DNA of 64,000 bases, from assembly GCA_025558075.1 (NCBI GenBank), contig JAHLKF010000024.1, forward strand, positions 241,606 to 305,605, given 5' to 3'. The notes beneath the pieces are model-generated. The model did no database searches. It had not been told where the DNA came from and saw only the letters and a list, made by a program, of their open reading frames with translations. The DNA is from Gaertneriomyces semiglobifer (Eukaryota; Chytridiomycota; Chytridiomycetes; Spizellomycetales; Spizellomycetaceae). The stretch's first letter is position 1, and each line of letters starts with the position of its first letter. This document shows, piece by piece, positions 41,102 through 64,000 of this stretch. The translations under genes and the position numbers were made by a program.

Positions 41102-41365
41102 GAGGTACTCTGAGTATTTTACTAGGCACTCAAAAAATTTCATAAAAAACGTTCTCGTAAGCGTCTTTCAAGGTTTTGAGTATTTGAGTAGTTTGAGTTT
41201 CAAGTTTAGAAAGATTATAAGGATGACCAATGAAATTTGTTAAAAAAAAAACAAGGACCTATATTACAACTAAAAATGCCATTTTCGACCCACTCTAGCC
41301 ACTCAACTTTTTTCGTTCCGGACAAAGCTTTTTTCACTTCAAATCACTCGTCTCATTTTTGCGTA
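41102..41365. repeat. 264-bp direct repeat, copy A
   Basis: It begins GAGGTACTCTGAGTATTTTAC and ends near TTTTTGCGTA. It pairs with 44773-45036 at the same length with scattered substitutions. It ends 14 bases from the 3' end of the primase-helicase gene. Confidence 0.85.
41324..41332 (-). terminator. AAAGCTT 3' motif after primase-helicase
   Basis: On the minus strand this reads AAAAAAGCTTTG, about 50 bases past the stop codon at 41380. It lies inside repeat copy A. Confidence 0.35.
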
Positions 41366-41379
41366 AATTCTCAATTCTC

Positions 41380-43817
41380 TTACTCTCCGTACATCGGTGG
41401 TGGCGATACTTCCATCGTCGTCTCCTCACGCACCAACTCTAAATCATAGATGTACGTCCTCTTGATTCGATTCGCTGTCCCATAATCCTTGCAACACTTG
41501 TCCCGCCCTCCACGTGCCTGCTTGTTGCATCCTTTGCATATGTTGATAGTCTTGATTTCATACCCCAACATCTTGAACGCCGAGTGATCATTCTCATCGA
41601 ACTTGGGTTTGACATCTTGATGATTGAACTTCATATAGTTGTGGAAAGCCTTCTTCACATCCTGCAAACTTGTCTTGATACGTACTGGTTCAACGAACCT
41701 TTTCCGAGCATAAAACATATGGGTAGCATTCTTGTTTCCATCCGGCGATGATGTTAGATACCGGTACAAGTGGTTGGTCGCTACGGCAGCATACTGCATG
41801 TTTTCTTTGAAGTATTCTGGAGAAAAGTCCCAAAAGTCCTTGTTGGGATACTTGTCTCTGGTCGACTTGTACATGGATACGCACTTGAAGATCAACTCCA
41901 TCAGCTCGACTTTGACGATTCTATCCAGAATGCTGCTGTCCAGATTGGTGATGGCTCTGTGGAAGGTCATTATCGGAAAGCGACGTGTGATGCATCCTTG
42001 GGAGTTCGTAAAGGAAAAGAAAAAGTTCCCAAAGACCACCATTTGGGCAGGGATGTGACCAGAAAATGCATCCTTATGCTTTCCAACAATGGACGTACGT
42101 TCTCCAGTCACCATGGTTTGAAGTTGCGTAGGATTCATAAGTTTGTGCATGTCTGAAGGAATTTCGGGTACTACGATAAGGTTCTTGTCATGCAGCCCTG
42201 AGTTTCCATACTTCTCTTCCCAGTTTGCGGCAATGATCCCTATCGTATCTGGGGCAAACATTTTTTCAATGATCTTATTCAGGGTCGACTTTCCGGTATT
42301 GGCGGCTCCAATGATACAAAGCGCAACAGCCCATCTGTCGCATTGATTGACGTTGAAAAATAACCTGCCGATCAACGCAAGCAGAGTATTGAAGATTTCA
42401 TCTACTTCATCCTCCGTTCTGTCTTCACTGAGCTGATATTTGATAAACGAATCAAACGTAGGCGTACTTCCCGATCCCTTGTAGTCCGCATCAATGTAGT
42501 GACGTGCTACTTTGCCTTTGATGCGCTCGTCCGTATAATCCACGAATTCAGCCTCTTCTAATAATAGGCACCCGTTGCGACACGCAAGGATGTTCTTGTC
42601 CACCTTCATAAACGACAGGTCCTTGTCATTGTACAATTGCAGGTGGTCCATAACATCCTTGAAGCGTCTCGGAGTCGAAGTGAAAACATCACTGCCGGTT
42701 AGGACGTTGTTCACAAAATCGGCGTACGACTCGAGCTGAACATATGCAGCTGGCTGAGCAGGCGAAATGGGTTTGTAGATGAATCCTTTGTGCTTGAGTA
42801 GTTTCTCCTTCTTAGCATGAGCCCATAGTTGTTGCATGAGTATCTGATGAGGTGTCGGCGGTTCAGGATTAGCAGACTTGCTTTCTTTTGAGACATCCTT
42901 GTCTCTGACGGCAGCAACAAACTTGTGGTCCCCGGCGGATGGGCGACAGACAAACAGCAACGTTCCATCGCGGCGAACTAGAAACGGGTGGTTGCTGTGA
43001 TTGACATGAGTGCGTTTGCAAATGTCGCAATCGAAATCTTTTGTCTCTTTAAGGATAAGGCGTTGGTGTTGGTCGACCTTCAAACATTTGTGACCCTTGA
43101 ATAGATCTGATCTCTTGAATAACTCAAAGTCTTCCTTGATACTCACTGGTTGATTCTCAAAAGGATCGGCAAACAATGCCTTGACAGAGTTCTGATGAGC
43201 ATCATGATTGTCCGAGTTACAAGTACTGATCATCAACTTTTTCAACCACTCCGGAATCGGTGAGATAGGAACATTGCCAATGTCGTTGGTCGGTTGCCAC
43301 GTATACTGTCCTTCGGCAATCACTGAAGGTGGAGTCATGATGAATCCGCCATCGCCGCGACTGTCGATAGCACAGAGTTTTCCATCGATGGCGATAACAC
43401 AGGAAGCCGTAGTAGCAACTTGGTGTCCGAACTCTTCATCCCATTGAAAGTAATAGTGGGTACCACCACTCGGAGTATTACTTTTCAAAGTTTGAGGTTC
43501 ACCGTGGGTTGCAATAAGTTCCTGCCAGTCATCAGTTCCTTTGCTGTCGCGATAGATTTCCGGCGATTTGGACTACTTGGCGGGCTTCTTGTTATCGATA
43601 TCAATCACCAGGATGTTGGACTTGGGTCCAGTGATGCAGCCGATGTTTGCTTGGACACCAGAAATATCGTTCAACGCCTTGGTGAAGTCGACTAGTTTGT
43701 AATCCTTCCATGTCTTCACAAGGGGATACTTCCGATCGTTGGCAGGAATCAGTAGGAATCCTTTAGCGACTAAAACGCCTTCGCCTTTTTGACTTCTTTG
43801 ATCGAAATGCCTGTCAT
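41380..43817 (-). pseudogene. PrimPol-SF3 (D5-like) primase-helicase, broken
   Basis: This is the replication protein of the element. From the ATG at 43817 the N-terminal PrimPol-like domain contains a VIDID acidic motif, then SGGTHYYF (residues 7-14 of the intact downstream frame) and RGDGGFIMTPPS. The reading frame is lost by a one-base change in an A-run near 43785 and by an in-frame TAG near 43574. The following 702 codons are open. The SF3 helicase part has Walker A GAANTGKST (394-402), Walker B LIVVPEIP (about 437) and motif C MVVFGNFFF. A Cys-rich segment CDICKRTH lies mid-protein and a C-terminal Zn-binding-like CKGCNK...CCKDY is present. The combination is typical of PLV, virophage and giant-virus primase-helicases. 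A helicase-only product could still be made if an internal start is used. Confidence 0.85.
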
Positions 43818-43880
43818 TTTGTACGACACAGATGAACCACTATTTTGGGGAATGGTGATTTATCTAACCTTTAACAAATA

Positions 43881-43892
43881 AAAAAAGCTTTC
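43881..43892. terminator. AAAAAAGCTTTC motif between two viral genes
   Basis: It lies about 100 bases past the 43993 stop and about 65 bases upstream of the primase-helicase ATG. Confidence 0.3.
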
Positions 43893-43900
43893 TTTATATA
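43892..43900 (-). promoter_or_regulatory. TATA-like box for primase-helicase
   Basis: TATATAAAG on the minus strand about 75 bases before the ATG at 43817. Confidence 0.4.
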
Positions 43901-43992
43901 TTTCCAGACGCACGTTATAGAAAATACGGATATTACACACGAAATTATGCCAGTTTTATTTGTACATTGCATCAAGCATTTTACACATGTTC

Positions 43993-44529
43993 CTATCTTC
44001 CTACATTCTCTTTCCTATCCTTCTGAATTTCCATCTTCCTCTTCCTCTTCCTGTCTTGGTTACTCAACCTCTTTTCAGGTAGAATACCAATGAAGGTACG
44101 AGACGTGTCAACCTTTTTCCGTTCATTGTATGCGATCCATTCTCCCAAATACGAACGACGAGGAACATTCACTATCGGCAAAGGTAGTTTGTCGTACTCT
44201 ATCTTGTACATGAGGCTGTCCCGATTGTAGTAGAGCATGGTTTCCGGTAGCTTGAAGTGCTTGAGAACCAAAGCATCGCGAATGTTTTCGAGGTCGTAGA
44301 TGATTTCGAAAAGATCGCGACTTTCCTCATCGCTCATTGTCTTGTAGTATAATTGCACATTGCACAGTAGAATAATCGCGTCAAGTTTTGTGGGTCGAGC
44401 ATATATAGTTTTCAGAAAAACAGAGGGATCTTGTGTAGCTCTGAACGAGTTGCAGATGTACTTCCAAAGTGAAACTTGACGAGGCGTGAAAGTAAGAGGG
44501 ATAGGTTTGTCGAGGAAAGCGGCTTCCAT
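43993..44529 (-). CDS. Viral hypothetical protein, 178 aa, basic C-terminus
   Basis: Not recognised. The protein is mostly helical in appearance, with a Tyr/Leu-rich middle (NVQLYYKTMSDEESRDLFEI, LPETMLYYNRDSLMYKIEYD) and a Lys/Arg-rich C-terminal 25 residues that could be a nuclear localisation or nucleic-acid-binding tail. The ATG at 44529 is supported by a TATA-like box about 70 bases upstream. It sits directly upstream of the primase-helicase on the same strand, and the pair is enclosed by the 264-bp direct repeats, so a replication-linked role is possible but only inferred. Confidence 0.7.
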   Translation of the reverse strand: MEAAFLDKPIPLTFTPRQVSLWKYICNSFRATQDPSVFLKTIYARPTKLDAIILLCNVQLYYKTMSDEESRDLFEIIYDLENIRDALVLKHFKLPETMLYYNRDSLMYKIEYDKLPLPIVNVPRRSYLGEWIAYNERKKVDTSRTFIGILPEKRLSNQDRKRKRKMEIQKDRKENVGR

Positions 44530-44594
44530 GTTGGTGATAGTCCTAGAACTTTTCTAGGATGGAATGAACTGAATGAAATGAGGAATCGAGGTCT

Positions 44595-44604
44595 CTATTT
44601 ATAT
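44595..44604 (-). promoter_or_regulatory. TATA-like box for the 178-aa gene
   Basis: ATATAAATAG on the minus strand, 66 bases before the ATG at 44529. The intervening leader is T/C-rich. Confidence 0.45.
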
Positions 44605-44772
44605 CCGAAATTGAGCATTTGAAGAAACACTTTTACCTTTTCTTTTTCGTGAAAGATAAACCACGCCGTACGGTAAGGTTCCGACGGCAATGTAAAAGGT
44701 ATTTGTCAGTCTTTCAATTTTCTTTCTCGATCTATGGAAGATGTTCGCGACCGCCAGTTCATTTTACTTTTC

Positions 44773-45036
44773 GAGGTATTCTGAGCATTTTACTAGGCAC
44801 TCAAAAAATTTCATGAAAAACGTTAGCGTAAGCGTCTTTCAAGGTTTTGAGTATTTGAGTATTTGAGTTTTCAAGTTTAGAAAGATTATAAGGATGACAA
44901 TGAAATTTGTTAAAAAAAATACAGGGACCTATATATACAACTAAAAATGCCATTTTCGACCCTCTCTAGCTACTCAACTTTTTTCGTTCCGGACAAAGCT
45001 TTTTTCAGTACAAATCCCTAGTCACATTTTTGCGTA
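44773..45036. repeat. 264-bp direct repeat, copy B
   Basis: Second copy of 41102-41365, 3,671 bp away in the same orientation. It too ends 14 bases before a minus-strand stop codon, here that of the tyrosine recombinase. Confidence 0.85.
44995..45006 (-). terminator. AAAGCTT 3' motif after tyrosine recombinase
   Basis: Within repeat copy B, about 45-55 bases past the stop at 45051. The minus strand reads AAAAAAGCTTTG. Confidence 0.35.
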
Positions 45037-45050
45037 TTCGACTCAAACTT

Positions 45051-46259
45051 TCAATCAACCACTATCACTTCATCATTGTCGCTTTCCTCAGGCTCAGAGG
45101 CATCTTCGGTACTCTCTTCTTCGTTCCAGTCCTCTGCTGTGCTCTTAATCTTCATCACCCTAAAGTAAAGATCGAACTCTGCCTTGGTATGGTGAAAGTC
45201 GCTGGCGTAACGAGTCAATTCTCCCGTGTTACGAACCGTTTCGATGAGATGCGTAATATGGCTGCGGCGCATGTCCGAGATTCCGATGGGTTGTTGACGA
45301 ATGCACTTCCACGCTTCCGTAATGTGGTCGCGGAGGGCACGCCAAGTCAGTTGCTTACCTTCAAAGTCCACAAGAACATGGCTGGTACCATCAGGAAAAC
45401 AAAACTTCTTGAAGTGGCGCCAGCGATCAAGAATGCCGGAAAGGTCCTGCGGGATGTCTTGCACGTAACTTCCCGATTGACGCTTGCGGTTGGTGTTGAA
45501 GATGAGGAACTTGCGGTTGCCTGCTACGAAGAATCCATCCTCGGTGTAAACATCAAAAGGAGACTCCTTGATGTCAACCCACTTGGACCGGATGTTGGGC
45601 ATCAGTGTGTAGATGCATAGGAGCAATCCTCGCAGAAGGATGTGGTACTGGGACTTGGTCAGCCTGCGAGTGGCAGCCAGTAGAGATGACGCATTGTCAT
45701 CCCAGTTCTTTTGCGCACTCTCTTTCATGTCTGGGAATTCCACGTGCACATCGCGGTTCTGCTCGCGTGGCGAAGGTTCTCCAGCGAGGCGCCTATCTTC
45801 AGCTGGCTTCCTTTTAGATTTCATAGCAGCATACAAAGCCCGTGTCAACGTTTCCAAGGTGCCATCGTCAAGGCACATGAGTTGACTACCTTGAAGTCGA
45901 TAAAAGCGCGCAATGCTACTGAGATATTGACCTTTGACATCTTCGTTCAATTTCCAAGAGGCTACAGCAGCAACGATTTTTTCTGGCTTGTCAAAGTTCT
46001 TTTTGATATTCTTCTTGTCTCCAAAAAGACTAAAAACAGCCTTGACTTCTTTCCGGCTCGGATCATAGGCTTTGGTTCCAGGTTTGCGTTTGTCATTGAA
46101 GACTTTGGCAATTTCTTCACGAGTCAAGTCAAAGTTCGGGTATTGCTTGGTAGGACGACCGCGTTGTTTCTTCGCCTGTGGAGGTGTTGTCTCGACTGCC
46201 TGGTGGTCGCGTTTCCGAGAATTGGTCGGTACGGAAACTTCGACATTGTCGGTACTCAT
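45051..46259 (-). CDS. Tyrosine recombinase (integrase family, Crypton/PLV-like)
   Basis: A site-specific recombinase expected to cut and join DNA through a Tyr nucleophile. The 402-residue frame is intact. The N-terminus carries an AT-hook-like RGRP (33-36) in a basic stretch. The catalytic domain shows the first Arg in YTLMPNIRSKW (R224), a beta-hairpin Lys region (RKFLIFNTNRKRQ), an Arg-x-x-His-type box (SDMRRSHITH, R331/R332 with H334/H337), a His pair in SDFHHT (356-357) and the likely nucleophile in FDLYFRV (Y365). The tail is acidic. The pattern is closer to eukaryotic viral and Crypton recombinases than to phage integrases. It coexists with a DDE integrase in the same element, which is unusual. 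Confidence 0.75.
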   Translation of the reverse strand: MSTDNVEVSVPTNSRKRDHQAVETTPPQAKKQRGRPTKQYPNFDLTREEIAKVFNDKRKPGTKAYDPSRKEVKAVFSLFGDKKNIKKNFDKPEKIVAAVASWKLNEDVKGQYLSSIARFYRLQGSQLMCLDDGTLETLTRALYAAMKSKRKPAEDRRLAGEPSPREQNRDVHVEFPDMKESAQKNWDDNASSLLAATRRLTKSQYHILLRGLLLCIYTLMPNIRSKWVDIKESPFDVYTEDGFFVAGNRKFLIFNTNRKRQSGSYVQDIPQDLSGILDRWRHFKKFCFPDGTSHVLVDFEGKQLTWRALRDHITEAWKCIRQQPIGISDMRRSHITHLIETVRNTGELTRYASDFHHTKAEFDLYFRVMKIKSTAEDWNEEESTEDASEPEESDNDEVIVVD

Positions 46260-46340
46260 CTTTGAAACTTTTTGATTTTTCGTAGTATTTGTATAGCGGC
46301 GATGTTACTTAAAATATCTCTTACTCTATTGAGATAGTTA

Positions 46341-46414: not shown

Positions 46415-46445
46415 GTATTTTTCTATCCATCATTCTATCAATTCT

Positions 46446-47666
46446 TTACTCTGGTTCTGAACCAGTTTGGGTACTTTTACATGCAACTTCAACGACTCGA
46501 TGACTTCTCATGTTCACATTCGGAATGAAAGCTACATCTTGGAATACTTCAACAAACTTGGACGCCATTGGATAAGTTTCATCGCTATCAACATAGGCGA
46601 CAAACCGACTAAAGATGGTCCCGCAAGTTGATCCCGGGTTTCGTTGCTGGGCAGCCTTGGTCTTATCGAACAGGACGCGCTTCTTCAGCATCCCAATCAT
46701 AGCATTCCCAATTAGCCGTCCACACCAAGAGGCGTATGGACGCATAGGCGAGAGCGTGATGACTCTTTGTATGTTCCCTTTATCAAGTTCAAGTTGAATC
46801 TTTTCCCAAAACTGAACATGCTGACTGGGACTGTTCACGTATACCAGGTCTGATTTGTGCCAGTCTTCCAATTGAAGTGCATCAATGAAAGACCCATCTC
46901 TTTGAATTCCATAGCATTGTGTTGCTTCTACGAGTGATTCTGGGTTCCAGCAGGGATCCAGGTCGATACCGTTTGGACCGGCGAAAGCCTTTATCTTTGC
47001 ATAGAGCCAGGCAGGAGTGTTGTATTCGGACTCGGTGGATGGAGCGATGTTCTTTCGGCGTACTTTAAGCGGTCTAAGATTGACATCTTCTACTTGATCA
47101 TTGCTATTGGGAGCTTCAACTCGTACCTTCCGCGGTCGAAGAGAGTATGTTGAGGAGGGTACTGGACATGTGGGTGAAGGTGTCGCTGAAGAAGGTGGAG
47201 TCGCTGGAGCGGTGGCTGTTTTTGTTAAGGTAACCGCTGGCGGAGGTGGCAAGGGATCTTCCTTGAATGCTTTTTCCATATCACTAGCGACGACATTGCA
47301 TCTGCCACCGAAATACTTCACGACTTTCGTCCAAGTTTCCGCATAAGTGCGCCCTTCTTTTTCCGAGACTTTCTTTACGGCAAGTAAAAGCGAGACGTTC
47401 GTTGGCAATACATCTCTCTCGATCCCAGCTTCTTGAGGAAAAGTGAGGACTCTGCCGGCATGACCAAAGTTCCTCCCTTGTGGTTCGGAGAGGTTCCAAC
47501 GTTGTGCCAAATAGTCCTGAAGATTGGAGAACTGGGACTTGTAGAGTTTCTTGTCCATGATGCGGTACATTGCAATCATCGTATTGAAGAAGCTTTCGGG
47601 CGCATCTGGATTGATAACAAACCATCGTTTGTCTATGAGATTCTCCTCTGCCAGTAATGGGTCCAT
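46446..47666 (-). CDS. Dam-like N6-adenine methyltransferase-related protein with viral N-terminal domain
   Basis: The open frame extends to 47720, but the first ATG is at 47666 (MDPLLAEENL) and a TATA-like box lies between, so I use 47666. Residues 1 to ~135 form a domain shared with the neighbouring fusion gene (RWFVINPDAPESFFNTMIAMY, DKKLYKSQFSNLQDYLAQRW, GRNFGHAG). A Pro/Thr-rich linker follows. The C-terminal ~190 residues match the phage-type Dam layout: NTPAWLYAKIKAF, GIDLDPCWNPES, DWHKSDLVYVNSPSQHVQFW, NIQRVITLSPMRPYASWC. The catalytic NPPY motif is N-S-P-S here, so methyl transfer is doubtful; it may serve as a DNA-recognition or structural relative. It is followed closely by the fusion gene upstream (65 bases). 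Confidence 0.65.
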   Translation of the reverse strand: MDPLLAEENLIDKRWFVINPDAPESFFNTMIAMYRIMDKKLYKSQFSNLQDYLAQRWNLSEPQGRNFGHAGRVLTFPQEAGIERDVLPTNVSLLLAVKKVSEKEGRTYAETWTKVVKYFGGRCNVVASDMEKAFKEDPLPPPPAVTLTKTATAPATPPSSATPSPTCPVPSSTYSLRPRKVRVEAPNSNDQVEDVNLRPLKVRRKNIAPSTESEYNTPAWLYAKIKAFAGPNGIDLDPCWNPESLVEATQCYGIQRDGSFIDALQLEDWHKSDLVYVNSPSQHVQFWEKIQLELDKGNIQRVITLSPMRPYASWCGRLIGNAMIGMLKKRVLFDKTKAAQQRNPGSTCGTIFSRFVAYVDSDETYPMASKFVEVFQDVAFIPNVNMRSHRVVEVACKSTQTGSEPE

Positions 47667-47731: not shown

Positions 47732-49658
47732 TTACTTCAAGTGGCTCAGTAAATAACTTATGACATCGCCTTGGAAGCTATTTCCTAACAATCTAGCGAC
47801 ATCCGTCTTTGTCAACTTTACATCCATCCAATCATCAGGTAACCATTGCAAACGACACTTTTCAATCCTTGTCAGAAATCGATATACTCCATCACAGCAC
47901 ACCATCTGTTCGTAACTATCCGAACATAATAAAGCTTTACATTTTCCATCCTTGAGCAATGTAATTTTTCGGGTAGAGAAATTACGTGAAAGCGAACAAT
48001 ACACTCCGCGCGGAGCTACAGCTGCTGACATATACGACCATTGAGCTATTGGTGTCTTCTCATTTTTTTCCATGATATCTTCAATTCGAGGCGTCGGTTT
48101 TGGAGAAGGCTTGGGAACAAACCAATTACACCAATAAAGACGCGGTCGCTTCTGAAGTGAAAAGTCCTTTGCGTTGAGTAGAATCGGATTCATTTTCAAA
48201 GCACTAGAGATTGTTTCCTGGGACTCGCGATTCATACGAACGTTTTCAAACAGTACATGCTTGGGCTTTGTCCCTTTCAGAATCCTGATGAATTCAAAAA
48301 ATAATTGCCCTCGTTCATCGTAAAAGTCCTTATTAAGATGCTTTTTGTTTAGGCGCATCGCGGAGAACGATTGACAACAGCTTCCTCCTATCAGTAGGTC
48401 ATATGGTGGTATGGTCGATACATCAATTTTAGATATATCTCCAAGATTCACATGTGTTGGAAAGTGCGTCTGATACACCTTGATAGCACTCGGATCGATT
48501 TCCGAGAACCCAACACATATAGCGTCTGGGAATACTTTGTGAATAGCATATTCACCCGTCCCCGATACCAGAAAAGAGTGATAGATATCGGATGGTCGGT
48601 GCCGAGTGCGGAACTTTGTATATTCTCGCAGTAGCATTAGGTATGAAGCTGATATCCGAAAAGTTCTCGCAAAACTTGGGAGCCAGCGGGTACGTTTCAT
48701 CAGAATCGAGATAACATATAAAGTAGCCCTGGCGTTTATTGATAGGTCGGTGTAGTATACCAATCATCCCAGTCGAGAAGAGTAGTTTACACCAATCTTC
48801 CGTCGGTTCAAGTGGCGAAAGTGTGATCACGGCTTTGATATTACCGTTTCGCATCTCTTGATATATTCTCTGCCTCGTCTCCATATAACCATGCGAGATG
48901 GCAATATAGGCAATATCAGATTTTTCCCAATGTTGTGTATTCAACGGATTCATACTGCGTGGATACGCAAAGCTCTTGATTTTTGTGTCAAGCCAATCAG
49001 GAGTATCAAGTATTCGTAATTGTGCTTGTACGTTTTTGCTAGGTGGTACGTTGATAGGTGTGTTGGATCGGCAATCTTCCTCATCAGTCGAAAGGTCTTC
49101 TGTTTCCTGATACTCGACCCTTGCGCGCTTACGCAATGACCGAGAAGCATCTGGCTCAGATTCAGGAGATGGCAGGTGACTTTCAGTCCTTGTTGATGCT
49201 GTTTTTTCTAAATGCGTTACAAGCGGCGTAGGAACAGGCTCTTCAAATGCCAAATTGAGCTGGCAAGCGACCACATTTCTGCGACCACCAAAGAATGTCA
49301 TCGCCTTCCTCCAAACATCCGCACATGTCAGACCCTTCTTTTCTGCCATTTTCTTTATGGAGAGCAACAGTGTGACATTCGTCGGTAGTGACTGTTGCTC
49401 TATTCCATTTGCGCAAAGGTCTTGGATAACCTGACCAGCCTGACCAAAGTTCCTGCCCTGTTGGAGCGATATCCTCCAGCGTTGAAGTAGGTATTGTTGC
49501 AAGTTCGACGCTTGCGATTTATAGAGCTTCTTATCAATGATCTCGTACATAGCTGTCATGGTGTGATAGAAAGATTCTTCTACATCGGCATTCACAATAA
49601 ACCATCTAGTATCAATGGAACGTTCTAGGTCGACCAAATCTAAAGTCGTCGATGGCAT
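47732..49658 (-). pseudogene. Fusion of viral N-domain, Dam-like domain and C5 cytosine methyltransferase, frame-shifted
   Basis: From the ATG at 49658 the first part repeats the N-terminal domain of its neighbour (RWFIVNADVEESFYHTMTAMY, DKKLYKSQASNLQQYLLQRW, GRNFGQAG). It continues into a shortened Dam-like domain without any NPPY (AYIAISHGYM) and reaches the first C5 methyltransferase motif, IRYLSLFSGIG. The frame is lost in a run of four G (plus-strand C run 48560-48563), and the remaining C5 domain is open in the next frame to 47732. That part has GFSEIDPSAIKVYQTHF, motif IV GGSCCQSFS (usual PCQ reads CCQ, catalytic Cys kept), ENV in VLFENVRMN, the QxRxR-type LQKRPRLYW, and LLGNSF near the end. 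One base separates this from an intact ~640-residue bifunctional protein. Confidence 0.75.
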
Positions 49659-49837: not shown

Positions 49838-51175
49838 ATGTCTTTCTGCGCATTAACAAACCGTGAACGGGAGCAAGTCGAAGATGTATACGGGAGGATG
49901 AAAGTAGGTAGAGACAACCTTTGGCTCGCTGTCCGTCGCAAGTATCCTGACTTCAAAGGTAGCCAAAGGGCAGTTTTGTACGATTTTCTCTATTCGAAGG
50001 ATGAATGGCAGCGGCATAGGAAGCCGGACAAGCCCACTGTCGTTGCGCCTTTGAATATTCAGAAACCAGGTTACCTCCAAATTGACATGGTGTCGATGCG
50101 AACATACACAGATGCAGGGTATGTCGCCTTTGTCCATATGATAGACGGCTTCACCAAAAAATCGTTTGCAAGACCCTTGAGGAACGAAAGGGAAGTGGAC
50201 ATGACGGATGCAGTGGAGGACATGGTGAAACAGTGTCAACGAGAATTTAAGGGGATCAGAATCGTACAGACAGACCAAGGTAGTCACTTTCAACGTATCT
50301 TTCGAGCAATGCTACAGAGTCACGGCATCAAGCATATCTACTCCCAGGCAGGTCGCCCAGAAAGCAACGCGTATATAGAAAGAAGGGGCTCTGATATCAA
50401 AAAACAATTATACGGTCTCATGAATGCCAACGATGACAGGAAATGGGTATCCCGACTTCCGACCGTAATAAACAATGTGAATAACATGCGTTCTTTTGCG
50501 ACTGGACACAGTCCTAACGACCTTGAAACAGCGGATCCTGAAATGGTCGCTCAGGCGCAAGCCAAGATTACAAAGAATATTTCGAAGCGATACCATGTAA
50601 ACTCGAGAACGAAACCATTACATATTGGTCAAAGAGTTCGCATTAAGCGTGACTTGAAAAGTTCGGTGAAGAAATACGGAAAGGCGGGGTATTGGTCCAA
50701 AGATATTTTCATCGTAGTAGAAAGGATCAATTCAACGTATGCGAATATTTTAGCATCTTACCGTTTAGAAGATGCAGATGGGAAAATCTTGAAAGGTAGG
50801 TACCCCAAAAGTTCATTGCTAGCGGTTCCTCCCATCCTGAAGGAGGATGCTCTCGATGAAAGTGAGGAAGAAGAAGAAGGTGAAGTTGAAGAGGACGACG
50901 TACCAAGTGTCGATGATCCACTCGAGGAGAATGAATTGATTAGAGAACAGAATGAGGAAGCCGCTGAACCACGGCGTCGGTCACTTCGTCTCAACACGGA
51001 CCAAGAGGATCACTATGAAGTTGAAGCAATTGTTGGACAAAGACAGTATCGTGGACGCACGCAGTACAAGGTGAAATGGCTTGGATGGTCAAGTGAACAC
51101 GACTCATGGGTCAATGAAGATGATATTGATGCACACGAATTGATTAATGAGTACAACGAGATACATGACAACTAA
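49838..51175 (+). CDS. Retroviral-type (rve) DDE integrase with C-terminal chromodomain
   Basis: The family inserts linear DNA by strand transfer, as in Polintons/Mavericks and chromoviruses. All 445 residues are open. An N-terminal helical region is followed by the RNase H-fold core with D83 (YLQIDMVSM), D146 (IVQTDQGSHF) and E181 (NAYIERRGSD), giving a D-D-34-E spacing. After an SH3-like segment (HIGQRVRIKRDLK, YGKAGYWSKDIFIV) comes a strongly acidic linker and a chromodomain (about 395-440: YEVEAIVGQRQYRGRTQYKV, KWLGWSSEHDSWVNEDDI). The chromodomain suggests targeting to histone-methylated chromatin. It is the only replication-half gene on the + strand, and its 3' end is 7 bases from the convergent zinc-knuckle gene. 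Confidence 0.92.
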   Translation: MSFCALTNREREQVEDVYGRMKVGRDNLWLAVRRKYPDFKGSQRAVLYDFLYSKDEWQRHRKPDKPTVVAPLNIQKPGYLQIDMVSMRTYTDAGYVAFVHMIDGFTKKSFARPLRNEREVDMTDAVEDMVKQCQREFKGIRIVQTDQGSHFQRIFRAMLQSHGIKHIYSQAGRPESNAYIERRGSDIKKQLYGLMNANDDRKWVSRLPTVINNVNNMRSFATGHSPNDLETADPEMVAQAQAKITKNISKRYHVNSRTKPLHIGQRVRIKRDLKSSVKKYGKAGYWSKDIFIVVERINSTYANILASYRLEDADGKILKGRYPKSSLLAVPPILKEDALDESEEEEEGEVEEDDVPSVDDPLEENELIREQNEEAAEPRRRSLRLNTDQEDHYEVEAIVGQRQYRGRTQYKVKWLGWSSEHDSWVNEDDIDAHELINEYNEIHDN

Positions 51176-54729: not shown

Positions 54730-55978
54730 ATGAGTGAAGTCGCTGTTCCTGAAACTGGCTTGCGAACTCAAATACATTTGCCCGCCCTTGGGCAGATCCG
54801 AGATCTGAACAAGTGGTGACATTTTCACCCGTTGGTCAGGCAGAATACACAACCAAAGCACGAACTTTGACACCCATACGGATCAAGGCTGATTCTAATC
54901 AAGCGTCCTTTATCTTGCAGAAACTTATACTCTCATGGGATCTTTCCATTTACAAGACGGATGGTACACCATTCCCGGCTGGAGCGGGTGTGAAGAACAC
55001 ACAGCTTGGGGCTGATGGAATCATCCAGACTCTGGTGATAAAAGCCGGTGGGGAGACGGTTGTGAACATCCCTAATTACAACGCGTACTTAGCCGATATT
55101 TACAAGAACCTTCCACATCAACCAAGGCGCTTCTCACAAAGATGTCGGGTTACAATCGAACAGACCTCTTTAGTTCTTCCTCCACCATTTCCGTCAACCA
55201 CCACCCATTGGTAGGTTTCCTTCACCCGAATCACGCAGGATTTCTTCCGGTCTGGGCTTTACCTGACCAAGCCATGGAGATTCAAATAACCTTAGCGGAT
55301 CCTGCCCAATTTTTTGTTGGTGCAAGTGGACAACCCGCTGAAGTTAGGGTATCGAATATTCGATGTCTCATACCAACCATCATACCACCGCCAAGTTATG
55401 TGATCAATACTACTCGTTCAATAGCCGACGGAAAGAATATTTTCTACGATTATGTAAGATCTACTCAAGTCGAGAACGCATCCAGTGGATCCAATTTGAA
55501 TACATACATGTTACATATGTCCGGGGTCCGATCCTTGCAAGGAATCTCCTGCGTGTTCATTGATGGAAATGCTGTCCAAGACCCTACCATGGATACTAAT
55601 CTTTCATATTCGTCTCAGAATTTACGAGAGTGGTGGATCCGTCTGGGACAATTGACAATCCCCGCGGGAATAACAGGTTTTACCCATTCCCCGACCGACG
55701 CTCAGACATTGCTCGTTACGCACTTATCCAATAACGACTTCGATCAGATCGGGAGTATGGATTTAAACTACGACTATGACACGCAGTTGTTCAACTTTGG
55801 GTATTCTTTCCAGGACAGATCAGAAGGTTCCACGGCTGCACTGGGATTTACTGGCACAGACGGTATTATGCGAATTACGACGAGGCACGAAGGATCTGTA
55901 CCTGTGACTGTTCGTTTACTCTCAACATTGCATGAGAATGTCACCCTTGCCATCGGATCAACTGTTACTGTCGTGTAG
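54730..55978 (+). pseudogene. Major capsid protein candidate (double jelly-roll type), two frameshifts
   Basis: Three successive frames encode one protein of about 415 residues: ATG at 54730 to about 54805 (MSEVAVPETGLRTQIHL), about 54806 to 55120 (VVTFSPVGQAEYTTKARTL, GADGIIQTLVIKAGGETVVN, IPNYNAYLADIYKNL), and about 55120 to 55978 (LTKMSGYNRTDLFSSSSTIS, HAGFLPVWALPDQAMEIQIT, VRVSNIRCLIPTIIPPPSYV, to the terminal AIGSTVTVV). The beta-rich sequence and its place after the ATPase and penton genes fit the double jelly-roll major capsid protein of Polinton-like viruses. The pattern of hydrophobic strands with QxLxIKxGGxxV... and NYN is in line with that family. Each shift is a single-base change. 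This copy cannot make full-length protein. Confidence 0.7.
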
Positions 55979-56486: not shown

Positions 56487-58142
56487 ATGTTGGCTCCGTA
56501 CAGGGCAAACATTCTAAGTCAGAATGGGATTAATAACCAACGACCCGTTGCCAACGTGCAACGGAAGCAGATGGGCTTCGCTGTCGACTATGACCAGATA
56601 GACGAATACGGACAACCAAAGGTAGTGTACAGCTGGAATCGGAACATCCATGACAAGGACAATGCTACGAAAAAGGCAACGGCAGAACTCTACCAGCCTG
56701 GACAACTGACCAGTAAAGAGGAGCTTCGTATGTCTGAGAAGCGACACTATACCAAAGCATACAAAGACGCCCTCGAATTCATCAGAGCTGAAGAAGACTA
56801 CCGTGCCCAAGAACGATATCTTGACAAAGTGACACCGAGCCGAAGGAACAATACCGCCTCCGGAACAAGTTCTTCACATCTTGCCATTCCTGACCAAGGT
56901 GGTAATGTATACCACTATGACGCCGCCACTACTGCCATGACCGGTCTGCGATTTGAGGTCCCACTTGGCACACGGGAAGTCATAGAAGAACCAAGTAACA
57001 AGATGGGAAGAAGTATCGATAGGGTGATCCTTACCAAAGAACGTGAAGTCACAGTTGATCCTGTTACCGGTTTAGGGCATGTGAATTATGCAACCGGCGT
57101 GTCTATTCCTGCCGATGTTGAAGTCCAGGATATGGACATTGACTATCCTATGCCAGGAACCTTCCCAGGAAGCATTGTACCTCGTGAACCGGCTCCTTCT
57201 TCACCTATTGAAGAAATCGTAGATACATCCAGTCCTGTACAAGCATATGCACCTGGTAGATTGCTTGTCAATGAACGTGATAATCCAGCTGAAGTCCAAC
57301 GCATCCTCGACCAAAATGCCTTCTATCAGAAAGTGTCTAATCAACCGGCAAGGACTCCTTTTAGAACAAGAAAAGAAGCACGATATGTTCCCTACAGTAA
57401 GAAGTCCAAGAAGGATGTCGTCTTGGATGCACCTATTGGAAGCACACCACATGTATCGACTGGAATGGAAGCGGCTATTGTTGAAGATGTTGGAAAACTG
57501 GTGACTGTCAAGCACACGGCTGGAGGTGCGGAGATATCATCTGCAGGGAGACCGTTTACTACCAAAGTAGACATCCTCATGCCATGGACAGATGCTAGAA
57601 CGGTAAGTGAACAGCACAATGTAGGGACGGTGTCCAGTGTTGCTAACGATGGGTTATATACCACTTCATCCATTGAATCTTCAGCTGGACGTCGTGGAAG
57701 TGATGTGAAACTCGTCAAAGGTACGAAACGTCCGGCAATGAGACAGCCCGATGAAAGACAAGTCAAGAAGCGAGCAAGAATTGGATCAGCACCGGCTGCA
57801 TTGCCAAAGATGGATATTCAAGAGTTCCACGCTGAGGACCCAAAGGAACTCGACCGTCGTATAAAAATGCGAACTTGGGGAAGACAGGTGAAGGCGGTGA
57901 TGGAGAATGTAGCCCCAATCAGAGCACCAGCCCTGGATGTAGATAATATTGCCATCCAACGTGGGTCCGCTATTCGTCCTCTTGCAAAACTGGGTAAGCT
58001 AGGTCCAGATCAACCGGATGTTGCTCTTGTAACATCGGCAGGTGCTTATCGTGGTACTGCCGAACCTACCGTGTCCATTAGAAAGAAGAAGCGGAAGGAT
58101 GCCGTGGATGAGCGACCTGCTAAGCGTGTGAAGAGATCCTAG
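56487..58142 (+). CDS. Large basic virion-associated candidate, 551 aa, unknown family
   Basis: Intact frame from ATG 56487. I do not recognise the family. The N-terminus (MLAPYRANILSQNGINNQRP) leads into an acidic/Tyr-rich region with an EEDYRAQERYLDKV helix, a Pro/Asp-rich middle, and two basic patches (KKRARIG and the terminal RKKKRKDAVDERPAKRVKRS), likely nuclear-localisation or DNA-binding signals. Its position between capsid and fibre genes suggests a virion or core protein. Its undamaged state contrasts with its neighbours. Confidence 0.7.
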   Translation: MLAPYRANILSQNGINNQRPVANVQRKQMGFAVDYDQIDEYGQPKVVYSWNRNIHDKDNATKKATAELYQPGQLTSKEELRMSEKRHYTKAYKDALEFIRAEEDYRAQERYLDKVTPSRRNNTASGTSSSHLAIPDQGGNVYHYDAATTAMTGLRFEVPLGTREVIEEPSNKMGRSIDRVILTKEREVTVDPVTGLGHVNYATGVSIPADVEVQDMDIDYPMPGTFPGSIVPREPAPSSPIEEIVDTSSPVQAYAPGRLLVNERDNPAEVQRILDQNAFYQKVSNQPARTPFRTRKEARYVPYSKKSKKDVVLDAPIGSTPHVSTGMEAAIVEDVGKLVTVKHTAGGAEISSAGRPFTTKVDILMPWTDARTVSEQHNVGTVSSVANDGLYTTSSIESSAGRRGSDVKLVKGTKRPAMRQPDERQVKKRARIGSAPAALPKMDIQEFHAEDPKELDRRIKMRTWGRQVKAVMENVAPIRAPALDVDNIAIQRGSAIRPLAKLGKLGPDQPDVALVTSAGAYRGTAEPTVSIRKKKRKDAVDERPAKRVKRS

Positions 58143-58214: not shown

Positions 58215-61200
58215 ATGTCCGGTCTTAATTCACGGACCGCAACAGAGTTGCGATTACTTACCAATACAAACATATTCTCTGGTTTTGTATCCGGTGATGG
58301 GTTGCAAGCCATTGGAGAGGATGTAGAGTTGAAAGATTTTCAAAGAGCCCATATTGAAGAGATCTCTAATAAGAATGGACCGATGCTAATTAATAACATA
58401 GACGCCGAAGCACCTTTGTCTTCAACGATCGAAGACGGCGTAGCATCCGTGTCCCTAATGTACAACGAGGAGGACTTTCAGGTTGATAATCAATCCGGTA
58501 TCGCCTTGCGTCGATCTGTCGCTGCGGAATTCCCTTTGACTGTTGAGAGGGAGGATACATATGATGTGATTGATTTAAAATATGGGGCTCCATTTGGAAT
58601 CTCTGAAGACGGATTGAGTTTGGTGACTGATTCTTCTTTAACATTGGATGGAGAAGGAAAATTGACCGTTGTCCGTGAAGAAAAGGAAACCTATGAACTT
58701 CCTATCGTGAAGGACACTGATAATGTGGTTAAGTTAAGCATCGACTCTCCACTCGTGGTGAAAGATGGCAAATTGGGAGTGGAGCAAAAGGAAATGAGCA
58801 AAGGTATTGGTGCTATCTCTGTGTACTCTGCAATGGACGAGATCATTCCTGGAATGGGTGATTTTATCGACATTCCGGATTTACCTGGCGACATGGAAGA
58901 GTACATTGGAAATGCCATACTGGTGAAATTGAATGTGTCGGATGATTTCCAGCAAACAGGGAACAGGCTAGCAATATGTTCCAAAGGCATGCATGAGATA
59001 CCCTATTACGGAGGACTCAGTGGTTTCAACTCTTCCAATCGGTTTACCTACAATGAAACCTTATCGACTCTGACGGCGCCGACATTCCATGCTGAAGCGG
59101 TCGACTATAATATTATTGAACCTCGGCAATTACCAACTTGCGGCTATGTTCATCAACTTTACCAATCGCAGGCAGGAAGCGGTATTGATGTTGGAGTCGT
59201 TACAAACGGACGCAAGTTGATCAAGATCAACCACGACACTACATTGAACATTAATGAAGCAAACCAGCTGGAAGTGAATGTTGCTAACATTGCGGACGGT
59301 ACTTCGGTCAAAGCAGTGAATGGGAAACTGTCAGTTGATCTTACTGCAGGTGACGGCATCAGCGTTACGGACAATACAATTGCAACAACTCTCACATTTG
59401 AAGGGAGTCTTTGGAGAACAGGCGATGTAGTGTCCGGTCGCACAGTCCTAAGTGGAAGCACAAATGTCACTGTTAGTACGAGCAATCCTTATGCGTACAC
59501 TATCGCCGTCACGGATCCACAACCTGCCATTGACAATTTGCAAGATGAAGTTACTGATCTCAATGACAAGGTCGACCAGAATAAGATCGACCTTGACGCA
59601 GAAGATGATCGCCTCGAAAACAAAATCGACGCCGTGGAGTCTCGTGTTCAACAACAAGAAACAAAGAGTGATCTCTTTGAGAGTGATATCAACACCAACC
59701 GGTCCAACATCATTGCATTGGACAATGCGAAGAATCAAATTCAAGGAGACCTCATTTCCTTGGCAGCGGACGTGACAGGGTTAACTGGTGTCGTAGATAC
59801 GGTCAATACGGTGGCGACTGGAGTGCAAGTCGCGCAGGCTGTTATGAAAGCCGATGTAGGTTCTCTTCAGGCTACCGCTCTATCATTAGGTGCCCAGCTG
59901 ACTGGTCTCGACAGTGTGGTAACAGCCTATACCAGTTTACCGGTGGTAAGAAATATCATCGGCGTGGGGGGGTTGCTCGTTACATCAGATCCTATTTCGG
60001 GTACAACAGTGATAACTGCAACCAACCCTCTGATGGCGAAAAGCAAAGGCACTGCTCCTGTAGATCCAATTCTAAAGTCCGATGATTCTATATTAAAGGA
60101 CAATGGTGGAGGAACCGACATCGGGGAGACGGCTCCTCCTGTCGATCCTCCAATATTGCCACCCAATCCACCTCCACCACCTCCTGGGGGTGATACGTTG
60201 AGGTCTACGGGACGAACAGACGGTAATAATGGACCTTGCCTTGACCCCATTCCACCTATATGGAAAGGTAAAGATCATACCAATCAGGAGAGCTGGTTCA
60301 GAGACAGTTGGGGGGACAGATACCGATTTCCGACAATTGAAGTTGATGGTGTCCAAGAACAGTTCTCGAATACGATGAAAATAATTTGCCTATTGTCCCT
60401 CACGGGCACATAGATATCATTCACCGGCGTACAGATGAAGACGACTTTTCCAGTGTCCTCTTGACACACGACAGGCACCTGCAATCAGGCTATCTAGGCG
60501 TTTACCATGAAAGCATGTTGCAAGTGCCTAACCTTGCCATGCTCTACGAGACTTGGGATTCATTCATGCGTCCGTATGTGGAATCGTGCAACTATCTAAA
60601 TGTTGTCGGAAATGGATTGACCAAAACAAATAATACATTATCCCTAAGTTTTGATCATACAACCTTTGCGAAAACAAGTGACCTTCAAAGTCTCACAACA
60701 AAGTCCTATGTTGATGGATTGTCGTATCTCACCGCGGGTACTGGTATCACGAAAACAGGGAGTACGTTATCAGTGGACAGCTCAGGAATTACCAGTGTAG
60801 GGACATTGACTGGTTTGACCTCTTCAGGTGTAGTCGCCATTTCCAATGCCACGGCGGCTATTAACACCACAACGGGTGCATTGCGTGTTACAGGTGGAGC
60901 GGGAATTGGTGGGAACATCTTCGCTGGAGGAACCGTCACTGCTGCTACCCCAACTGCTGCAGGACACCTAACAACAAAGGGGTATGTTGACGCATTGTCT
61001 TATCTTTCCGTCGGAGCCGGTTTGGTAAAGACAGGAAACACTATTAGTTTAGGATCAGATCTCAGTGCCTTCGAGGTGAAAAGTAATCTCAAGGTTCTTG
61101 CTTACAAGGACAAGGTTGATTATGCGACTGATGTAATTAATGCTCCAGCGTCCGTTACTTACGGAAGTGGTCTGTTGTTTAGTAATAACACGGTGTCGTT

Positions 61201-63409
61201 GAACCCAGCAGTCAGCGTTGATTCGGTTACGACCACTGGAAACATTTCGTTTGCAGGGTCCTTCAATGGAACAATGAATGTTAACGGTTCTTATCTGCAC
61301 TCCCTTGTCAATTCATCAACAGGTTCAAATTCGAGAACAACTCTTCAAATTAGAGCAGGAACTGGAACCGGTCTCTATATTAATGTCAACGCGCAGGCAC
61401 GCACTGCCTTTGGTGGTGGAAATACAGCGACACTGATGAACTACAACGGTGCTCTCAGGGTTCTCAGTCAAAGGGAAAAGGGTATCGTTATAGATGAACA
61501 TGGCGCTATAGATGTATCTGAAAGGCTTTCAGTTGGAACAACTTCTGATGTGGTTGCATTCCCTCCGCTAAGCATGACGTCAAATTCCACTGTCATCTCA
61601 AACCAAGCATATGGGAATGGAAATTATGTTGCGAGTACAAGTTCTATCTTCTCATCCACGTATCAACCATATGCGGTTTTTGCTGCCGGGGGAGGATGGT
61701 ATTCAGAAGCAACATCAGGTTACGATGTCACCACCGGTCTGTATGCAGGCTCACAAACAACCATTGTGAATTCGACAAACATTGCTGGAGAATGGGTTCA
61801 GATTCAGATGCCAGTTGGCATTTTCTTAACATCGTTCGATATATCTGGAAGTTCTATCTATATAAGAAATGTGAGGGATTTCACCCTAGTCGGTTCGAAC
61901 GATGGATCCACCTTCATTCACGTTCTTTCATCGACTATTTCATCTTGGATTAATGGTCAAACGCAAACAGTCAATGTACAGACACCAAAGACAACAAAGC
62001 CATTCAAGATATACAGGTTGATTATACGATCTGTTAGCGGACTTAATTCAGCGTATTGCTATGTCGGTCGTTTGGTTTTCAATGGCACACCTGTTTCGAT
62101 GGACATCCGAGGCACCATTTCCGCAAATCAGGTAGTGACAGAGAACTTGGTATGTTCCGGTGGTGTCCAGATGAATGGACTCACTTTGCAAGATGATGTT
62201 CTTTCAATTGCAACGTTTCCTGACATTCCTATGACAGGCGCTCTAACAGGACAATATACTACTAGTTCATCAAGTGTATATTCGGGAACGTGGACGGCTT
62301 GGAAAATTTACAATCCATATGTTTCGGACAACAACAACACTTGGTTTTCTGCTAACGATACATATTCAACCAATGCGCCGTACTCGTATATTGGGACAGC
62401 ATCCACAACAGTGGATGGATCGGCAGTCAGTGGCGAATGGGTTCAGTTGGGCATGCAAACTTCAATTGCTTTGACTTCCGTTTACATTGCTAGTCCTACT
62501 GCTGCAAGCAGTCAATCCTTTGATATTAAAGATTTTGTTCTTGCAGCTAGTAATGATAATTCAACTTGGAAACAGGTGACTTCTGGAACATTCAATTGGA
62601 GTAGTTCTACTACGAATGGCTTGTTGCGTGAACTAAATATCGTTATAACTACTAACCCACCTGCTTACAAATCGTACCGATTGATTGCAAAATCCATTAT
62701 TGGGGGTTCAACAGGTGCAAAGTACGCCCAGATATACGCCTTGAAATTTAAGGGTGGACCCTTGAAGAAGGTTTTGAGTGTGGACAACCAAAAAGTAAGG
62801 AACCTAGCGTTCAAAGATACGATCGACTGGAATACAAACGATATTATTAACAAACCTTCTACATTCGGCGCTACTCCTATCGGTGTTTTTCAATACACTG
62901 GAGTCAATTGGTTGACAGCAAGCCGAACCGATGGATATTTAAGTTTTGACTACCTACCGAACATTTCGACCAATGGAATCACATGTACAACCACAGAAAC
63001 CTCCTATGGTTATCGGATTTCATTTTTGACACTGCCATCCGTCGGTGTATACTCAGTAGAAATTGTTCTCTCTTGGATGTATCCATTAAATACTCAAGTG
63101 AATGCATACGAATGGTTATGTCAAGCCCGTAATGTGATTAGAGATTCTGAAGCAGAATACATGCCAGAAGGAACAGTGATGAGCAAAAGTAACATAATCA
63201 CGTATCCAGAATCTGCCACACAGTATGCATCAGGAAGATTTCAAACCTTAAGATTCAATATGTGTGCCCACATCCAATCTTTAACCAATTGGATGAATAC
63301 ATTGTCCTTTATCATTTGGCATGTTCCCACGACGGTAGAACATAGAACGGATGCTTTCAAGATTAACGATATTGGTATGTCACGATTAATTGTAACAAGA
63401 GTTGGATAG
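58215..63409 (+). pseudogene. Giant fibre/adhesin protein with two discoidin-like domains, one frameshift
   Basis: Two frames, 58215-60413 and 60386-63409, together encode about 1,740 residues. The second has no ATG at its start and the two overlap by 28 bases, so a single-base change near 60365 most likely split one gene. The first frame is beta-rich with fibre-like repeats, a coiled coil (DLNDKVDQNKIDLDAEDDRL), and a Pro-rich hinge (PPILPPNPPPPPPGGD). The second frame has YVDxLSYLxxGxGxxKTG repeats (about 108-131 and 200-222) and a phage-tail-fibre-like RVTGGAGIGGNIFAGGTV. It also has two F5/8-type C (discoidin)-like domains (about 400-570 and 610-795), each with GEWVQ(I/L), a DF(T/V)L..SND.S(T) core and YRLI near the end. 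Discoidin domains often bind sugars, so host attachment is inferred. Confidence 0.7.
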
Positions 63410-63491
63410 GATGGACACTTCATTTTCCGATTCTTTTCTCGATCAAAAAAGGATTCTTCACTTTCTGGAAAGGGAAAAGGATCCGAATGAG

Positions 63492-63498
63492 AAAGCTT
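63492..63498. terminator. AAAGCTT motif in convergent 3' region
   Basis: It lies 83 bases past the fibre stop and 22 bases from the minus-strand stop at 63520. Confidence 0.3.
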
Positions 63499-63519
63499 AA
63501 TAACATTGAAGTGGAAGAA

Positions 63520-63993
63520 TCATTTTGTTTTACGTGGTTTCCTTTTATAATACATTCCTAAGGACCATGCCCAATCATCAGGTTCGGCGTCACAAGAGAG
63601 TGTGAGAATATGACCTTCTCTTCTGTTCAAGTCTGCGATATTCATGGTGTTATGTAAAAACTCCTCTCCAATACCATTCACATGAATGTCGTTTTCGTAC
63701 ACGATTAAGACCCGCCGTTTTCGAAAATGTTTTTGACCAATGAATGAGTGTCGTATGATGCTTTCATGGTATCCACTATAATGGAAAATTTCCCATTGGT
63801 GATGCTCTCCCACACTGTAATGAAGCTCCGTGTCCGTCCCGGGTGGGTTTAAACGGATGCGTTGTGAGATAAAGAATCTCACGGGAAACTTGAGTAGTGT
63901 CTCTACAGCCTGTCGTCGTTTCTTAAAGTCCGCATGATGCATGAGACGACGTCTTTCATCCAAAATCATGTGAAGGATTTCCAATGGAAACAT
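63520..63993 (-). CDS. Viral hypothetical protein, 157 aa
   Basis: The frame from ATG 63993 is open to TAA at 63520. The protein starts MFPLEILHMILDERRRLMHH, which recalls an F-box-like opening (hydrophobic-Pro-hydrophobic-Glu-Ile-x-x-x-Ile), but the remainder (RRQAVETLLKFPVRFFISQR; EEFLHNTMNIADLNRREGHI; LSCDAEPDDWAWSLGMYYKR) matches no family I know. It is convergent with the fibre gene. An F-box adaptor function is a guess. Confidence 0.55.
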   Translation of the reverse strand: MFPLEILHMILDERRRLMHHADFKKRRQAVETLLKFPVRFFISQRIRLNPPGTDTELHYSVGEHHQWEIFHYSGYHESIIRHSFIGQKHFRKRRVLIVYENDIHVNGIGEEFLHNTMNIADLNRREGHILTLSCDAEPDDWAWSLGMYYKRKPRKTK

Positions 63994-64000
63994 CTTTTAC

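What the first reader, a model, noticed from the sequence alone, without database searches (positions are those of the whole stretch)
41102..64000. Endogenous Polinton-like/virophage-type virus in a flagellated fungus
A 22.9-kb block in a host chromosome carries a capsid morphogenesis set (ATPase, penton, major capsid candidate, pX-like, fibre) with a PrimPol-helicase, methyltransferases and two integrases. Such elements are best known from algae and other protists. The lack of polymerase B and the mix of genes do not match a standard Polinton, so it may define a separate fungal lineage.
Basis: partly seen in the sequence, partly recalled or inferred. Interest (0 to 1): 0.85.

Follow-up and report, generated by a model that had tools for sequence, protein, structure and literature searches.

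The report
Fungal virus with palindromic hairpin-type ends
The chromosomes of a chytrid fungus carry many integrated copies of a small DNA virus whose ends are exact palindromes, which likely fold into hairpin caps when the virus is free and which its integrase is predicted to open so that it can insert itself.

Summary
The block is real: an integrated polinton-like (MELD-type) virus in the chytrid Gaertneriomyces semiglobifer. The capsid protein folds as a double jelly roll; packaging-ATPase, rve-integrase and D5-like helicase genes are present; PolB is absent from this element. The genome gives at least 31 ATPase matches. The kind is known: a Spizellomyces PLV and Powellomyces "MELD viruses" are on record. 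The left end is 40530, not 41102, and the contig stops about 50 bp before the right terminal repeat.

The new part is the end. Position 40530-40585 is a perfect 56-bp palindrome exactly at the virus/host junction, the outer edge of a 0.93-kb terminal inverted repeat. The genome has 41 such sites (reversed controls 0). They share an outer TGTCACAGT; the inner sequences differ between classes yet are self-complementary (231 of 257 inner pairs; shuffles at most 102). Three of six insertions read at both ends show exact 5-bp target duplications outside the palindromes.

Best reading: the free genome has hairpin ends, copying round them keeps the arms matched, and the integrase nicks at the hairpin base after CA. 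A tyrosine-recombinase-like gene may resolve replicated ends. Hairpins in free DNA were not observed, and the pattern is known to me only from this genome.

The parts
37932..40529 (-). Host flank: Copia-type retrotransposon ORF, cut by the virus insertion; the listed ORF reads on into the viral end up to 40757
   Evidence: Pfam RVT_2 E 1e-55; junction with viral DNA at 40529/40530
40530..40585 (.). Terminal 56-bp perfect palindrome (28-nt arms), outermost bases of the virus
   Evidence: same palindrome at 3 further class A ends
40530..41455 (.). Left terminal inverted repeat (right partner off the contig)
   Evidence: 931 aligned columns, 97.1% identical in inverted orientation to the class A right end L062
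41380..43338 (-). D5-like SF3 helicase / primase C-terminal domain protein
   Evidence: DUF5906 E 1.1e-9; phrog_864 'DNA primase' E 6e-22; primase_Cterm E 2e-14, below its cut-off
43993..44529 (-). Unknown 178-aa ORF
   Evidence: no family
44773..45036 (.). Internal direct copy of the inner edge of the terminal repeat (other copy 41102-41365)
45051..46259 (-). Tyrosine-recombinase-like protein, candidate end resolvase
   Evidence: aligned R224, K259, R331, H357, Y365 shared with class D and class B proteins; no recombinase family matched, only weak unrelated hits; structure model low-confidence
46446..47666 (-). ORF 406 aa, function not established (C-terminus looks methyltransferase-like by eye)
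   Evidence: no family
47732..48700 (-). C5 cytosine DNA methyltransferase
   Evidence: Pfam E 4.8e-32
48552..49658 (-). ORF 368 aa, resembles the N-terminus of ORF 406 by eye
   Evidence: no family above cut-off
49838..51175 (+). Retroviral-type (rve) integrase with C-terminal chromodomain
   Evidence: Pfam rve E 3e-16, Chromo E 1e-13
51289..52281 (-). Zinc-knuckle (CCHC) protein
   Evidence: weak Pfam E 0.019
52520..53242 (-). Packaging ATPase
   Evidence: phrog_2666 E 3e-7; 31 matches in the genome
53318..54034 (+). Penton candidate
   Evidence: position; about 97% identical in C38b and C11; only an E 0.94 PDB sequence hit
54730..55978 (+). Major capsid protein, broken over three reading frames in this copy
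   Evidence: fold of the one-frame C38 copy
56487..58142 (+). pX-like protein (551 aa)
58215..60413 (+). Fibre-like protein
   Evidence: weak coiled-coil and Adeno_shaft (E 0.043) hits
60515..63409 (+). Fibre-like protein with F5/8 type C stretches
   Evidence: Pfam F5_F8_type_C E 2.7e-6, just under its cut-off, two stretches
63520..63993 (-). ORF 157 aa, last gene before the missing right terminal repeat

Best explanation
This is an integrated polinton-like virus of the chytrid Gaertneriomyces semiglobifer whose chromosomal copies end in exact palindromes, and the free viral DNA likely has hairpin ends that its retroviral-type integrase is predicted to nick at the base and insert into the chromosome. 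Steps. (1) Shown: the outermost viral bases form a palindrome (56, 57, 49 and 52 bp in classes A, B, C and D); in classes A and B it is the edge of a 0.83-0.93-kb terminal inverted repeat, and in C and D the 30 bases next to it are inverted at the two ends. Exact 5-bp target duplications flank three of six insertions read at both ends, outside the palindrome. (2) Shown: the inner palindrome sequences differ between virus classes but stay self-complementary. (3) Inferred: this happens because one arm templates the other when replication passes round a hairpin end. (4) Inferred: the palindrome ends in CA, followed inward by GT or AT, so an rve integrase cutting after CA at the base of the hairpin would free a 3'-OH carrying the folded arm; strand transfer with a 5-bp stagger and host fill-in would leave the full palindrome. 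(5) Inferred and weakest: the tyrosine-recombinase-like protein resolves replicated, fused ends back into hairpins, as telomere resolvases do.
For: Perfect palindrome exactly at the junction in the window, C38, C49 and both ends of C38b, next to unrelated flanks. Genome pattern searches give 30 and 35 sites, 41 in union, with 0 for the reversed control in each. In 16 sequences (14 classes) 231 of 257 inner pairs are complementary; 2000 shuffles have mean 69 and maximum 102. Scan of 264,000 held bases for perfect inverted repeats (arms 15 or more, loop 12 or less, two-letter sequences left out): 12 found, 9 of them these ends. Seven IMG/VR matches to the same outer pattern have arms of only 10-14. 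The single centre base in classes B and C is A at some ends and T at others; the two C6 ends differ. TIRs: 871 bp at 99.4% (C38b), 833 bp at 99.0% (C11), 836 bp at 97.6% (C31), 931 at 97.1% (class A). TSDs: CTCGT (C38b), CCGTG (C21), ACCGT (C11). Recombinase-like ORFs with aligned R-K-R-H-Y in classes A, B and D. Eight of the 14 end classes were folded as single DNA strands: each forms one long hairpin, and none of 200 shuffles each does as well. The 14 PolB-family rows lie outside the class A and B copies and outside the paired class C and D palindromes, so these elements need another way to finish their ends.
Against: No free viral DNA was examined, so hairpins are unseen. Of six insertions read at both ends, three lack an exact 5-bp TSD: C6 shares only ACGG, C35 has none and its two 30-bp flanks are reverse complements, and C31 has none, its left palindrome being truncated. 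The centre-base flip could be plain A/T substitution. The recombinase call rests on motif and order; the model has pLDDT 41, the class A/D against B profile comparison gives probability 0.9%, and no match was found in class C, whose replication region I could not read. Classes E, F, G, K, L and M and two class B copies have mismatches; G (C6:638591) has 10 of 25. Several sites have no viral gene row nearby. No relative with such ends was found in IMG/VR.
Confidence: 0.6

Rival explanations
1. Parvovirus-like fold-back ends: the free genome has terminal palindromes that fold only as single strands and prime their own copying, without covalently closed ends and without a telomere resolvase.
For: Same arm identity, same full palindrome in the insert and the same centre-base flip would result. 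No confirmed resolvase.
Against: The gene set (packaging ATPase, D5-like helicase, double jelly-roll capsid) resembles that of large dsDNA viruses, for several of which hairpin-ended dsDNA is described (PMC12085832, passages). Pfam and PHROGs showed no rolling-circle nickase among the window ORFs searched.
Confidence: 0.18
2. The palindromes are double binding sites for the integrase or for a tyrosine recombinase, kept symmetric by protein binding; the virus replicates as an ordinary linear or circular element.
For: The outer 9 bases are shared by all sites found (by design of the search), and 11-12 by most, as expected of a protein site. A recombinase-like gene is present.
Against: Protein binding explains a conserved outer part, not inner arms that differ between classes and remain complementary. 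Tyrosine recombinases are not expected to give target duplications (PMC12220804, passages).
Confidence: 0.15
3. The palindromes are by-products of assembly or of head-to-head joining of elements.
For: The contig ends just before the right repeat, and one C49 end is joined to telomere-type repeats.
Against: The same 56-57 bases recur at several ends with different host flanks, and with matching TSDs at C38b.
Confidence: 0.04

Closest known systems
Polinton-like virus in Spizellomyces punctatus (Bellas and Sommaruga 2021, PMC7805220; passages seen)
   Same: Same fungal order, integrated PLV; Spizellomyces proteins are 59-61% identical to the C38 capsid protein. I did not check that they belong to the published element.
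   Different: 'hairpin' occurs 0 times in that text; its termini were not compared here.
Powellomyces chytrid fungus MELD viruses 1-6 (GenBank / NCBI taxonomy)
   Same: MELD virus 5 hexon is 56% identical over 99%.
   Different: Genome records were not available here; termini unknown to me.
Polintons / Mavericks
   Same: rve integrase with chromodomain, double jelly-roll capsid, packaging ATPase, TIRs.
   Different: No PolB in the element; exact TSDs are 5 bp rather than 6 bp; terminal palindromes.
Phaeoviruses with telomere resolvase and a telRL-like site (PMC13236599; passages seen)
   Same: A eukaryotic virus proposed to form hairpin telomeres from a palindrome that resembles the 56-bp telRL of phage N15.
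   Different: Giant virus, thought to integrate through a tyrosine recombinase as a circle, with the palindrome internal; here the palindrome is the outer end and the insertion looks rve-type.
Poxvirus / ASFV / PBCV-1 hairpin ends
   Same: Linear dsDNA with terminal repeats and hairpins, flip-and-flop forms in vaccinia (PMC8956199, title and abstract start in listing; PMC12085832, passages); best capsid fold matches are PBCV-1, faustovirus and ASFV.
   Different: About 24-kb integrating element; perfect rather than mismatched stems.

Membership tests
Polinton-like virus (PLV/MELD) | Double jelly-roll major capsid protein | tested here: met
Polinton-like virus (PLV/MELD) | Packaging ATPase beside the capsid genes | tested here: met
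   phrog_2666 head and packaging, E 3.1e-7; Pfam hits below cut-off; order kept in C38b and C11
Polinton-like virus (PLV/MELD) | Penton with single jelly roll | tested here: inconclusive
   candidate ORF only; no family or significant PDB sequence match
Polinton-like virus (PLV/MELD) | About 14-40 kb with terminal inverted repeats | tested here: met
   C38b 38781-62205 with 871-bp TIRs; class A right end on C38 97.1% to the window's left end; the window copy itself is cut by the contig end
Polinton/Maverick sensu stricto | Protein-primed DNA polymerase B in the element | tested here: not met
   none of 14 PF03175 rows lies in the class A or B copies; none among window ORFs or five class B proteins. 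One PHROGs hit named 'DNA polymerase' (phrog_4210, E 3.8e-9) falls on the helicase domain
Polinton/Maverick sensu stricto | 6-bp target site duplication | tested here: not met
   5 bp in 3, 4 bp in 1, none in 2 of 6 insertions read at both ends
Virophage | Virophage-type MCP/penton/protease/ATPase set | tested here: inconclusive
   Sputnik and mavirus capsid folds listed below giant-virus ones; no protease among the window ORFs searched, a SprT-like domain in class B
Hairpin-telomere replicon (N15 type) | Palindromic telomere sequence | tested here: met
   in integrated form only
Hairpin-telomere replicon (N15 type) | Telomere resolvase of tyrosine-recombinase type | tested here: inconclusive
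   R-K-R-H-Y alignment; weak N-terminal fold matches to recombinases amid unrelated rows; class A/D to B profile match not significant
Hairpin-telomere replicon (N15 type) | Covalently closed ends on free DNA | not testable with these tools
   no free viral DNA or reads

The most novel reading that the evidence does not exclude
A whole group of fungal polinton-like viruses uses covalently closed hairpin telomeres, made by a virus-encoded tyrosine-recombinase telomere resolvase, instead of protein-primed PolB ends, and integrates by a new route in which a retroviral-type integrase opens the hairpin at its base and carries the folded telomere into the chromosome.
Probability: 0.38. Interest if true: 0.88.

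Novelty: new variant of a known kind. Interest (0 to 1): 0.72.

Why it matters
To my knowledge it is open how polinton-like viruses without PolB finish and protect their DNA ends. Here integrated copies seem to preserve the answer: a palindromic end that evolves as a unit. If right, it joins hairpin telomeres (known from poxviruses, ASFV, chloroviruses and phage N15, proposed for phaeoviruses) to retroviral-type integration in one small virus. It also gives a sequence signature (outer TGTCACAGT, inner self-complementary, 5-bp TSD) that can be looked for in other chytrid genomes and tested with two proteins and a 56-bp DNA.
Full report
What is there. The window is C24:241606-305605 of a 20.86-Mb, 66-contig genome and ends with the contig. 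Proteins filed as Gaertneriomyces semiglobifer lie on contigs of the same lengths as C38 and C11, so I take the host to be that chytrid (Spizellomycetales). From 40530 to the contig end lies a viral block with D5-like helicase, C5 methyltransferase, rve integrase with chromodomain, packaging ATPase, capsid protein and fibre-like proteins. The capsid protein of the C38 copy, one 416-codon frame, folds as a double jelly roll (model pLDDT 57). In the window the same gene lies in three frames, so this copy is damaged.

Extent. Searches of the genome gave 31 ATPase rows, 38 capsid rows (fragments included) and 43 integrase rows, the last including chromodomain-only hits. I call the window type class A (C24, C38 1-16355, C49, C45) and a second type class B (C38 38781-62205, C11, C31). 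The two share the capsid module (in C38b: capsid 84-88%, pX-like 94%, integrase 84%) but differ in the replication module. Class A has a D5-like helicase; class B has a D5_N-type protein and a separate SF2 helicase with a weak Prim-pol 4 hit. The integrases near class C and D palindromes are only 28-31% identical to the window's.

No PolB in these elements. A whole-genome search with the protein-primed PolB family PF03175 gave 14 rows. None lies in the class A or B copies, nor between the paired class C palindromes (C6, C21) or class D palindromes (C35). Several lie about 7 kb outside class D palindromes and one beyond C38b, so PolB-bearing elements also live in this genome.

The ends. Alignment of copies puts the left end of the window element at 40530, where a Copia-type element begins. 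Bases 40530-40585 are a perfect palindrome with 28-nt arms, the only such inverted repeat (arms 15 or more, loop 12 or less) in the 64-kb window. The same 56 bases end the C38 and C49 copies next to other flanks. Class B elements end in a different palindrome of 57 bases, with terminal inverted repeats of 871 bp at 99.4% (C38b), 833 bp at 99.0% (C11) and 836 bp at 97.6% (C31). A class A right end on C38 matches the window's left end over 931 columns at 97.1% inverted; it shows that the window stops about 50 bp before its own right repeat. For classes C and D I read only 30 bases inward; these are exactly inverted at the two ends of the C6, C21 and C35 elements.

Palindromes genome-wide. TGTCACAGTGN{20,50}CACTGTGACA has 30 sites (control 0). 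TGTCACAGTN{8,38}ACTGTGACA has 35 (control 0), 11 of them new, 41 in union; 37 were read and 4 were not shown. I sorted the 37 by eye into 14 sequence classes. Eight classes (A, B, C, D, H, I, J, N) are complementary at every arm pair in at least one copy; two class B copies have one mismatch each; E and F mismatch only near the centre; K, L and M have 2-5 mismatches; G has 10 of 25. Beyond the nine searched bases 231 of 257 pairs match, against a shuffle mean of 69 and maximum of 102 in 2000 (16 sequences, identical copies and centre-base variants dropped). The same outer pattern in IMG/VR gives 7 matches with arms of 10-14. Some sites (for example C1:1471506, C8, C9, C40) have no capsid or ATPase row nearby; I do not know what element they end.

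Insertion marks. Of six insertions read at both ends, three have exact 5-bp duplications outside the palindromes: C38b CTCGT, C21 CCGTG, C11 ACCGT (its left palindrome has collapsed). C6 shares only ACGG. C35 has none, and its two 30-bp flanks are reverse complements. C31 has none, its left palindrome being truncated. The outermost bases are TG...CA, and the palindrome is followed inward by GT (A, B) or AT (C, D).

Mechanism. Arms that differ between classes yet remain complementary need a process that copies one arm into the other. Replication round a hairpin end does this; protein binding alone does not. The centre base of the odd-length palindromes (B, C) is A at some ends and T at others, and the two C6 ends differ. 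That is what inversion of a hairpin tip gives, though plain substitution is not excluded. That retroviral integrases cut 3' of a CA is general knowledge, not a result here. A cut after CA at the hairpin base would leave a 3'-OH with the folded arm attached; joining and fill-in would give exactly the integrated form. These steps are inferred.

The resolvase candidate. The ORF at 45051-46259 aligns with a class D protein (37-38%) and a class B 338-aa protein (18%), with R224, K259, R331, H357 and Y365 in common. The order fits the catalytic residues of tyrosine recombinases (recalled). The structure model is too weak to decide, and profile comparison does not link class A/D to B. I treat it as a candidate only.

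What is known. A PLV in Spizellomyces punctatus is published (PMC7805220, passages), and Powellomyces MELD viruses are named in public databases. The large survey of Bellas 2023 excluded fungi (PMC10120064, passages). Cryptophyte PLVs are described with rve integrases and TSDs or with tyrosine recombinases; 'hairpin' and 'palindrom' do not occur in that text (PMC12220804, passages). Phaeoviruses are proposed to form hairpin telomeres through a telomere resolvase at a telRL-like palindrome (PMC13236599, passages). My ten literature searches, several with capped lists (see Tried and rejected), showed no report of terminal palindromes in PLVs; two key papers were not held.

Verdict. The palindromic termini are plain in the sequence. 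The hairpin reading is likely. The resolvase and the integrase route are open to direct test.

Noticed in passing
L041 (C49) 8058-8120: A class A terminal palindrome is cut short and joined to CCCTAA telomere-type repeats, then to an inner piece of another terminal repeat.
   Followed up: partly
C35:91630-115205 (L049, L050): The element's two 30-bp host flanks are exact reverse complements of each other, with no target duplication.
   Followed up: no
C35, C19, C30, C34, C39, C47, C2: Class D elements seem to hold two different capsid-like genes on opposite strands, about 47-49% and 29% identical to the window's.
   Followed up: no
C19:368895 and C30:158145 (L051, L052): Identical outer flanks: these two class D copies are likely segmental duplicates, not separate insertions.
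   Followed up: partly
C19:360299, C30:142238 and 150049, C34:134660, C39:68829, C47:30827, C2:1351172, C59:23094: PolB-family genes lie about 7 kb (C30:142238 about 14 kb) outside class D palindromes: PolB-bearing elements may neighbour the PolB-less ones.
   Followed up: no
window 41102-41365 and 44773-45036: A 264-bp piece of the terminal repeat's inner edge is repeated inside the virus; each copy ends about 14 nt from the stop codon of the helicase or the recombinase-like gene.
   Followed up: partly
L031 4451-4491 and 8730-8770, L034 1159-1199: In class B elements of C31 a second inverted repeat with 15-nt arms and an 11-nt loop lies about 0.7 kb from the end.
   Followed up: no
C38:62206-68098 (L030): The C38b virus sits beside or inside another virus-like element with ORFs unlike the window's.
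   Followed up: no
C11:376481 region (L035): The left palindrome of the C11 element has collapsed to a few bases while its 5-bp target duplication remains.
   Followed up: yes
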